Shown: in pieces, positions 48,959 through 51,482 of the stretch
How the letters are laid out: each line of letters starts with the position of its first letter
Position numbering within the stretch: the stretch's first letter is position 1
Source of the DNA: Phototrophicus methaneseepsis
GTDB taxonomy: Bacteria; Chloroflexota; Anaerolineae; Aggregatilineales; Phototrophicaceae
Length of the DNA: 64,000 nt
NCBI RefSeq assembly: GCF_015500095.1
Contig: NZ_CP062983.1
Span: 1,178,001-1,242,000 of the forward strand
Direction: 5' to 3'
Translations under genes and position numbers: made by a program
Notes under the pieces: model-generated
Databases searched by the model: none
What the model was told of the DNA's origin: nothing
What the model saw: the letters and a program-made list of their open reading frames with translations, nothing else

Positions 48959-48990
48959 AAAGCAATGGGCGGGTAAAAGGCCCGCCCATT
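48959..48990 (-). terminator. Rho-independent terminator of the Arg-rich peptide gene
   Basis: On the minus strand AATGGGCGGG-CCTTTTA-CCCGCCCATT forms a 10-bp perfect stem followed by GCTTTTTC. It lies 84 bp after the micro-gene's stop and before the GT-C start. Confidence 0.85.
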
Positions 48991-49073
48991 ATGCTGATCG
49001 TGTATCTATATCATTTTGCAAAAAGTCTTATCGAAACAAATGCCGCTTTCAAAAAATTGTTGTGTATAGCTGC

Positions 49074-49166
49074 TTAGCGATGGCTGCGTCGGCGGCTGCG
49101 CAGTACGGACCGGCGACGTGTACGACGACGCGTCTTCTGCCGTAAACGACGTAGAAAACCGAACAT
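49074..49166 (-). CDS. 30-residue arginine-rich peptide
   Basis: The peptide begins MFGFLRRLRQKTRRRTRRRS and has 14 Arg in 30 residues, plus one Lys and one His. Its ATG has an excellent ribosome site (TTTGGAGGTGAACTATG). A 17-base palindrome lies 24 bp upstream and an intrinsic terminator 84 bp downstream, so it looks like a complete monocistronic gene. Such a charge suggests binding to RNA, ribosomes or DNA; it is reminiscent of tiny basic ribosomal proteins in size and charge but matches none that I know. Confidence 0.65.
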   Translation of the reverse strand: MFGFLRRLRQKTRRRTRRRSVLRSRRRSHR

Positions 49167-49189
49167 AGTTCACCTCCAAATCTATTCGA

Positions 49190-49206
49190 CTGGATGTTAC
49201 ATCCAG
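49190..49206 (-). promoter_or_regulatory. Palindromic operator-like site before the Arg-rich peptide gene
   Basis: CTGGATGT-T-ACATCCAG is a perfect inverted repeat with 8-bp arms. On the minus strand it is preceded by TATGAT, a possible -10, so a bound protein would block transcription start. In RNA it could not form a normal hairpin because the loop is one base. Confidence 0.55.
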
Positions 49207-49318: not shown

Positions 49319-50149
49319 TTAGCGTTGTTGGCGCAGCCGCTCGATTTCCTCATAATAAGCGATTTCTTCTTCTGTCAGGTCATCAGGCAGCTCGCCATCA
49401 TCCCCCACCTGGAAGCGATACGTAGCCTGCTGCTGTGGTGTGGTCTGTGAATATTCTTCTTCGTAGTGGAATTTACGCTTTTCGCCTGTCTCGCGCATGA
49501 CGTCCATCAGCTCCTCATCTTCGGAATTCCCAAGCCGCAAGCGCATAAAGTGGTAGAGGAGGAAGACGCCCCAGACAGTCGTGCCGATCAGATAGCGATA
49601 GAAATAGGTGTTTGTATACGCGGGATTATTGCCATAGCCATCCTGCCAATAACCTGTCATGAGCAAGAGCAGGAAGATAGCGGCCCAACCCAAGAAGGCG
49701 AATAAGTGCGTCAGGAAGAAGCGACGGCGGCCATGCGCACGGCGTACCAGACGGTAGCGCTCAGCCTGTTGGGCATTGGCAAATTCAGGCTCTGGGCCGA
49801 TGAATACATAGCGGTAAAGGCGAAACGGCAAAGAGGCTGTCCAGACTACCGCGAGCCAACTGCTGTGCGCGGCCCATTTTGTCACGTTCCAACTCTGACG
49901 GGCGACCCATTTGGTGGCATCCCAGATATTGCGTGCTGTCCATCGGGTGGCACCCCAGATATTGCGCGCCGTCCATTTTGTCGCATCCCAGGTATTGCGT
50001 GCCATCCATTTGAGGATGCCCCAGCTACCCCGTGCCAGGAAGACCGTTGGCGCGGCAATCAGCCAGTAAAACAGCATCCCCAGGATATCCCAGAGCGAGC
50101 GATATGGGCGTTCATCGTTTTTGCGTTTGATCTTGCCATTGTAGATCAT
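49319..50149 (-). CDS. 2TM-domain membrane protein with Trp undecapeptide repeats
   Basis: A 276-residue protein. A first hydrophobic helix covers ~20-40. Residues 41-106 are six 11-residue repeats of NxWDATKWxAR type with Trp at positions 3 and 8 of each unit and basic residues between. A 2TM domain follows (~145-205; FFLTHLFAFLGWAAIFLLLL and FYRYLIGTTVWGVFLLYHFM), then an acidic coiled-coil tail. The repeats would form an amphipathic, Trp-lined helix at the membrane surface. Function unknown. The minus-strand ribosome site GAGGGGATG precedes the ATG. Confidence 0.7.
   Translation of the reverse strand: MIYNGKIKRKNDERPYRSLWDILGMLFYWLIAAPTVFLARGSWGILKWMARNTWDATKWTARNIWGATRWTARNIWDATKWVARQSWNVTKWAAHSSWLAVVWTASLPFRLYRYVFIGPEPEFANAQQAERYRLVRRAHGRRRFFLTHLFAFLGWAAIFLLLLMTGYWQDGYGNNPAYTNTYFYRYLIGTTVWGVFLLYHFMRLRLGNSEDEELMDVMRETGEKRKFHYEEEYSQTTPQQQATYRFQVGDDGELPDDLTEEEIAYYEEIERLRQQR
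49832..50029 (-). repeat. Six 33-bp repeats encoding Trp-rich undecapeptides
   Basis: Six in-frame 33-bp units, the middle ones closely alike on the plus strand (for example CCATTTGGTGGCATCCCAG and CCATCGGGTGGCACCCCAG). Conservation drops at both ends of the array. Confidence 0.85.
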
Positions 50150-51429: not shown

Positions 51430-51443
51430 AAGTGACATCCTCT

Positions 51444-51482
51444 GAATGATGCGTTTGAATGATGCGTTTGAATGATGTGTTT
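51444..51482. repeat. Three tandem 13-mers upstream of the SDR gene
   Basis: GAATGATGCGTTT, GAATGATGCGTTT and GAATGATGTGTTT follow directly (38 of 39 match), only 15 bp before the SDR start. They could alter its leader or be neutral slippage products. Confidence 0.95.

What the first reader, a model, noticed from the sequence alone, without database searches (positions are those of the whole stretch)
48959..49206. Free-standing gene for a 30-residue peptide with 14 arginines
It has a model ribosome site (GGAGGTGAACTATG), a 17-bp perfect palindrome just upstream and an intrinsic terminator just downstream. Such a complete setting argues for a true regulated gene that automatic annotation would miss. 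It may bind RNA or the ribosome, or shield DNA.
Basis: partly seen in the sequence, partly recalled or inferred. Interest (0 to 1): 0.65.

Follow-up and report, generated by a model that had tools for sequence, protein, structure and literature searches.

The report
Overlooked polybasic peptide gene
A deep-sea Chloroflexota bacterium has a very short gene for a strongly positively charged 30-residue peptide; a sister species keeps it in the same place behind a membrane-protein gene, so it is very probably real, but what it does is not known.

Summary
Minus-strand ORF 49166-49074 encodes MFGFLRRLRQKTRRRTRRRSVLRSRRRSHR (14 Arg of 30), with GGAGGT five bases before ATG, an 8+1+8 palindrome at 49190-49206 and an intrinsic terminator at 48991-48963. 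The genome is Phototrophicus methaneseepsis ZRK33. The one held genome of the same genus (MAG NAT117) has a counterpart, MFGFLGRLFRRKKIHKVTRQKRRRDRRHA, with the same GGAGGT-N5-ATG, 14 nt behind a pair of 2TM-family genes (the first is the orthologue of the window's upstream gene) and before a terminator-like hairpin. Of 39 codon-aligned base differences, 21 are at third positions. The neighbouring glycosyltransferase-like gene lies elsewhere there; the peptide stays with the 2TM-family gene. So it is very probably a true gene, but not free-standing: it looks like the last cistron of a 2TM-family unit. The palindrome is not conserved. Pfam, NCBIfam and PDB sequence searches gave nothing; searches of limited sensitivity in 396 genomes sampled from the class showed no third copy. 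Preferred mechanism (inferred): a basic helix that pairs with the acidic tail of the 2TM-family protein. RNA or ribosome binding is the main rival. A sound gene find; function open.

The parts
49074..49166 (-). Coding sequence of the 30-residue polybasic peptide (stop codon included)
   Evidence: counterpart L039:9208-9297
49171..49177 (-). Shine-Dalgarno GGAGGTG; GGAGGT stands five bases before ATG, the same GGAGGT-N5-ATG in the sister genome
49190..49206 (.). 17-bp palindrome (8-bp arms, one central base); on the minus strand a predicted 7-bp RNA hairpin with UAA loop; not conserved in the sister genome
   Evidence: absent from the 14-nt gap in L039
48953..48991 (-). Intrinsic terminator (11 pairs) and T-rich tail, about 80 nt behind the stop codon
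   Evidence: sister hairpin L039:9332-9358
49319..50149 (-). P0001, 276-aa protein of a 2TM-domain-like membrane family with acidic C-terminal tail; upstream gene of the inferred unit
   Evidence: P0001 itself has no Pfam match; 3 of 8 family members match PF13239

Best explanation
A real, very short protein-coding gene, the last cistron of a small unit that begins with a 2TM-family membrane protein (P0001) and ends at an intrinsic terminator. The product is a probably helical polybasic peptide (+15 here, +12 in the sister genome, counting R+K minus D+E) whose conserved start MFGFLxRL is its main hydrophobic part. Most likely mechanism: the peptide stays in the cytoplasm, rests on the membrane or the 2TM-family protein by its hydrophobic end and binds the strongly acidic C-terminal tail of P0001, acting as an accessory or regulatory subunit. 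Shown: ORF, SD, terminator-like hairpin, syntenic counterpart, third-position-biased change, acidity of the tail. Inferred: translation, co-transcription, helix, partner and effect.
For: Syntenic counterpart behind the P0001 orthologue (52-54% identical) and a paralogue in G001. GGAGGT-N5-ATG and a terminator-like hairpin kept. From the SD to codon 8, 26 of 35 bases are identical without gaps; over 27 aligned codons the differences are 10, 8 and 21 at positions 1, 2 and 3, Fisher p = 0.00016 (the alignment was made on protein, which favours this result; in the gap-free first 8 codons they are 1, 0 and 4, p = 0.028). The glycosyltransferase-like gene P0002 lies downstream and codirectional in the window, but upstream and divergent in G001, while the peptide is with P0001 in both. 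No sigma-70-like site between P0001 and the peptide. AF2 gives one helix 3-29 (mean pLDDT 69.5, pTM 0.22). Acidic tail: last 75 residues net -11 in P0001 and -16 in its orthologue, against -3 to -7 in five homologues from other genera, in whose surroundings no such peptide was found.
Against: Only two genomes, so conservation is thin. The surroundings of the five peptide-less homologues were not equally long: one has only about 500 bp downstream. The charge contrast is two sequences against five, and the two are close relatives; the paralogue that stands right before the G001 peptide has a net tail of only -3. No interaction, transcript or translation data. A polybasic peptide can bind any anion, so charge does not name the partner. 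The terminator-like count at the sister locus is no higher than in shuffles (3 found, 2.7 expected). The palindrome in the 152-nt spacer leaves room for a separate promoter or processing.
Confidence: 0.42

Rival explanations
1. Real gene, but the product is a nucleic-acid binder: a small RNA- or ribosome-associated basic protein working like CcaF1 (DUF1127) or like the tiny basic ribosomal proteins.
For: 47% Arg, helical prediction. Strong SD suggests high output (inference). Arg-rich small proteins bind RNA in other bacteria (abstract of PMC10253847; passages of PMC12501420).
Against: No Pfam, NCBIfam or PDB sequence match. No COX24_C/bS22-type match at E up to 1 in the genome, this ORF included (that search rang in 3 of 14 control genomes, so it is not a strong test). 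A ribosomal protein would not be expected to be restricted to one genus or to sit in a 2TM-family unit. The hydrophobic start MFGFL is its best conserved part.
Confidence: 0.3
2. Real gene for a membrane-active peptide: a small toxin or bacteriocin-like cationic amphipathic helix.
For: Cationic, with a hydrophobic end; hydrophobic moment of the first 11 residues 0.52 and 0.78.
Against: The hydrophobic part is only about six residues; it stands as last cistron behind a membrane-protein gene. Nothing in the ORF list around it or in Rfam at gathering scores suggested a partner antitoxin, but I ran no search made for toxin-antitoxin or bacteriocin genes.
Confidence: 0.08
3. Not a protein gene: a chance frame in the spacer or the 3' end of a P0001 transcript, where the structured RNA or the terminator is what counts.
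For: Only two genomes. Arg-rich frames are common by chance (tblastn and profile searches return many weak hits). No protein evidence.
Against: Same SD, start, length class and first residues in the sister genome, with third-position-biased change. 1 of 3146 small ORFs in the sample combines SD, basicity and a place between large ORFs. No Rfam match in the window at gathering scores.
Confidence: 0.08

Closest known systems
DUF1127 (Pfam PF06568, number recalled) small Arg-rich proteins: CcaF1, YjiS and the Agrobacterium SDPs
   Same: Very short, Arg-rich, positively charged; reported to bind RNA (CcaF1) or a membrane sensor kinase (PhoR) - the same two choices as here.
   Different: No Pfam match. 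47% Arg here against an average of 14% reported for DUF1127 (PMC12501420, passage). DUF1127 is described there as primarily alpha- and gammaproteobacterial.
Tiny basic ribosomal proteins (bS22 / COX24_C PF08213; bTHX)
   Same: About 25-35 residues and extremely basic (recalled).
   Different: No PF08213 match in the genome; no PDB sequence match at E up to 10; seen in one genus only; begins with a conserved hydrophobic MFGFL.
2TM domain proteins (PF13239)
   Same: P0001, the upstream gene, belongs to this neighbourhood: 3 of 8 members of its alignment match PF13239, best E 2.9e-5.
   Different: P0001 itself has no Pfam match. The peptide is not part of the domain; of the homologues in 6 genomes of other genera, 5 had their surroundings read and the sixth, on a short contig piece: no such peptide.

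Membership tests
Protein-coding gene (as opposed to chance ORF) | Conserved start, frame and SD in a relative at the same place | tested here: met
   G001 counterpart; one relative only
Protein-coding gene (as opposed to chance ORF) | Substitutions biased to third codon positions | tested here: met
   10/8/21 in 27 codons, p = 0.00016 on a protein-guided alignment; gap-free first 8 codons 1/0/4, p = 0.028
Protein-coding gene (as opposed to chance ORF) | Translated product detected | not testable with these tools
   RNA-seq reads for ZRK33 are said to be deposited (PMC8941918, passage) but cannot be read here; the word 'proteom' occurs 0 times in that text
DUF1127 (PF06568) | Match to the Pfam profile | tested here: not met
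   no Pfam family at E up to 1 for either peptide (filters drop most matches above 0.1)
COX24_C / bS22 (PF08213) | Match to the Pfam profile | tested here: not met
   0 matches at E up to 1 in the whole genome; none
Operon with 2TM-family gene | Same strand, directly behind the 2TM-family gene(s), in both genomes although the next gene differs | tested here: met
   co-transcription itself not shown
Operon with 2TM-family gene | No promoter between P0001 and the peptide | tested here: inconclusive
   none found by a sigma-70 consensus scan, but promoters of this phylum may differ

The most novel reading that the evidence does not exclude
In this genus a basic anchor that other members of the 2TM family carry as a short tail (homologues in four other genomes end in KRR, KRKRG, KRRQRYT and KPKRR) has become a separate polybasic micro-gene in trans, translated at a high rate and binding a more acidic tail of its partner: a micro-subunit split off from, or standing in for, a piece of its membrane partner, able to tune it.
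Probability: 0.07. Interest if true: 0.65.

Novelty: new member of a known kind. Interest (0 to 1): 0.33.

Why it matters
It adds a well-bounded, probably real 30-residue protein, at the length cut-offs of gene finders and databases that sORFdb describes (30, 38, 60 aa; PMC11796252, passage), in a cultured member of a little-studied class. It comes with a named candidate partner, which makes a simple pull-down worthwhile. It also shows that synteny plus a start-anchored pattern finds a counterpart that tblastn misses for such a peptide.

Tried and rejected
Homology by sequence alone failed: tblastn in 61 genomes (the own one and 60 relatives) gave 12 genomes with matches at E <= 10, none but the window's own below 0.17, and the hit in G001 was not the counterpart. 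The counterpart was found by synteny through P0001.

Wider search: start-anchored pattern MFGFLxRL in 98 family genomes hit 6 genomes (7 places, all read), and only the two of this genus have a short basic frame with an SD. Pattern with SD in 396 genomes sampled from the class hit 6 (6 places, all read), again only these two. Profile of the two peptides in the same 396 genomes: 50 genomes, 57 places at E <= 0.5; beside these two the best is G418 at 0.0015. I read 12 of the other 55 places; none begins like MFGFL or resembles the peptides end to end. One of the 12 (L067) has an in-frame ATG opening a 59-residue basic frame with a weak SD-like AAGG; I take it for chance but did not pursue it. 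GTG and TTG starts in these frames were not weighed. These searches need the MFGFL start or the basic run, so a diverged copy could be missed.

Surroundings of 2TM-family homologues: 36 loci were scanned, namely 30 of the 57 places plus 6 loci that cover genes already among the 30. Apart from the two peptides, four frame starts passed the filter (20-60 aa, R+K at least 35%, SD at least 4): two starts of one frame antisense inside the P0001 orthologue of G001 (L117), and one 20-residue frame each in L127 and L136, on the same strand as the 2TM-like stretch and overlapping it in another frame. A looser scan of the first eight fetched loci listed further basic frames, for instance L042:6888-6980 (30 aa, 43% R+K), about 2.4 kb downstream and inside a 988-aa ORF; none begins with MFGFL, and I did not count them.

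Regulon idea for the palindrome: dropped, since no other perfect or one-mismatch copy exists in the genome. Leader-peptide idea: dropped, because a terminator follows before the next gene. Rfam: nothing in the window at gathering scores. A paralogue remnant in the 152-nt spacer: three frames read by eye, no clear similarity. The scan for P0001 in the GTDB r220 contigs found one locus, the same sister MAG; it used two exact peptide patterns, so it reaches close relatives only. AF2 of P0001: long helices, pLDDT 73.7, pTM 0.39; no fold search was run, because of the low confidence.

Full report
What was checked. The minus-strand ORF 49166-49074 reads MFGFLRRLRQKTRRRTRRRSVLRSRRRSHR, 30 residues with 14 Arg. 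GGAGGT stands five bases before its ATG. The palindrome lies at 49190-49206 and the terminator hairpin at 48991-48963 with a T-rich tail.

Against chance. In a 464-kb sample of the same genome (window plus 20 stretches of 20 kb), 3146 ATG ORFs of 20-60 aa were counted; 2 have at least 40% Arg+Lys, 99 have an SD match of at least 5 bases, and only this ORF has both and lies between large ORFs. In the same sample 16 of 183 large ATG ORFs have an SD match of 6-7 bases, so this ribosome site is among the stronger ones; first-ATG starts are not verified starts. The palindrome is reached in 17 of 5000 shuffles of the spacer. The consensus scan finds 3 terminator-like sites in 1.7 kb where shuffles give 1.3 (sd 1.0), so the count is no proof, but this stem is the longest. 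Arg codons are CGT 6, CGC 5, CGG 2, CGA 1, no AGA or AGG; the sample's large ORFs use CGC 44%, CGT 27%, CGG 13%, CGA 9%, AGG 4%, AGA 3%.

Which organism. The window's genome is one contig of 5,631,885 bases. The paper on Phototrophicus methaneseepsis ZRK33 gives exactly that size (passage of PMC8941918). The only other genome of the genus held is G001. Its contig 24 has the length (158,717) and the place of match of PABP01000010.1, a record titled Anaerolineaceae bacterium isolate NAT117 (MAG), found in the named collection.

The sister locus. The gene upstream of the peptide, P0001, has a 52% identical orthologue in G001 at C24:7559-8341. Next comes a 279-aa ORF with two further stretches similar to P0001, and 14 nt behind its stop codon a 29-residue ORF, MFGFLGRLFRRKKIHKVTRQKRRRDRRHA, with GGAGGT-N5-ATG, then a terminator-like hairpin of 12 pairs 34 nt behind the stop (3 such sites in 2.4 kb, 2.7 expected). 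From the SD through codon 8 the two loci share 26 of 35 bases without a gap. Over 27 aligned codons, differences at positions 1, 2, 3 are 10, 8, 21 (Fisher p = 0.00016). Because the alignment was made on protein, the gap-free first 8 codons are the fairer test: 1, 0, 4 (p = 0.028). The start-anchored patterns occur once in each of these two genomes, at these places.

Rearrangement as a test. In the window the glycosyltransferase-like gene P0002 (PMT_2 at 19.6 bits, below the curated 26.1) follows the peptide on the same strand. In G001 its orthologue lies about 2.6 kb upstream of P0001 and points away from it. The peptide and a terminator-like hairpin are with P0001 in both. So the peptide goes with the 2TM-family gene, and 'free-standing' is not the right description. 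Co-transcription is not shown; a simple promoter scan found nothing between P0001 and the peptide.

The partner. P0001 has no Pfam match of its own, but 3 of 8 members of its family alignment match the 2TM domain PF13239. A profile of the family found matches in 33 of 154 genomes of the order. The last 75 residues are net -11 in P0001 and -16 in the orthologue; in five homologues from other genera they are -3 to -7, and in the G001 paralogue, the very neighbour of the peptide there, only -3. Four of those five homologues end in a short basic run that P0001 and its orthologue lack (alignment). In the surroundings of the five I saw no comparable gene with this start (one of them with only about 500 bp downstream; looser frames are told under Tried and rejected). 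This pattern suggested the preferred mechanism; it rests on few and related sequences.

The peptide itself. AlphaFold2 from the two-sequence alignment gives one helix, residues 3-29, pLDDT 69.5, which for a lone charged peptide means little. Neither peptide matches Pfam or NCBIfam; the window's peptide and a profile of both match no PDB sequence. The genome has no PF08213 match.

Known relatives in kind. Small Arg-rich proteins are known: DUF1127 proteins act through contact with the sensor kinase PhoR (abstract and passages of PMC12501420) or bind RNA (abstract of PMC10253847). These are precedents for the two leading mechanisms, not relatives. A search for papers with 'small proteins', 'arginine-rich' and 'Chloroflexi' found none, nor one with '2TM domain' and 'Chloroflexota'; both cover only the held library.

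Judgement. That this is a real protein gene I put at about 0.9. That it forms one unit with the 2TM-family gene, about 0.8. That it acts by binding that protein's acidic tail, about 0.4. It is an ordinary kind of discovery - an orphan small protein - in an unusually clean setting.

Noticed in passing
window 49907-50012 (inside P0001): A 33-base tandem repeat, 3.2 copies, gives an 11-residue Trp-rich repeat (W-x-A-R-N-x-W-x-A-T-K) in the long N-terminal helix predicted for P0001; the sister orthologue has fewer copies.
   Followed up: partly
L039:8354-9193: The sister genome carries an extra 279-aa ORF with two stretches similar to P0001 between P0001 and the peptide; the window has a 152-nt spacer with the palindrome there instead.
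   Followed up: partly
L039:6674-7426: Two adjacent frames on the minus strand look by eye like one methyltransferase-like gene split in two (frameshift or assembly error).
   Followed up: no
window 51443-51482: Short tandem repeat, period 13, 3.1 copies, just before the start of a 320-aa gene that looks by eye like an NAD-dependent epimerase.
   Followed up: no
G000:C1:5208046-5208429 (outside the window): A second 2TM-like stretch in the same genome, in a 154-aa frame; the peptide search found no second copy of the peptide in this genome.
   Followed up: no
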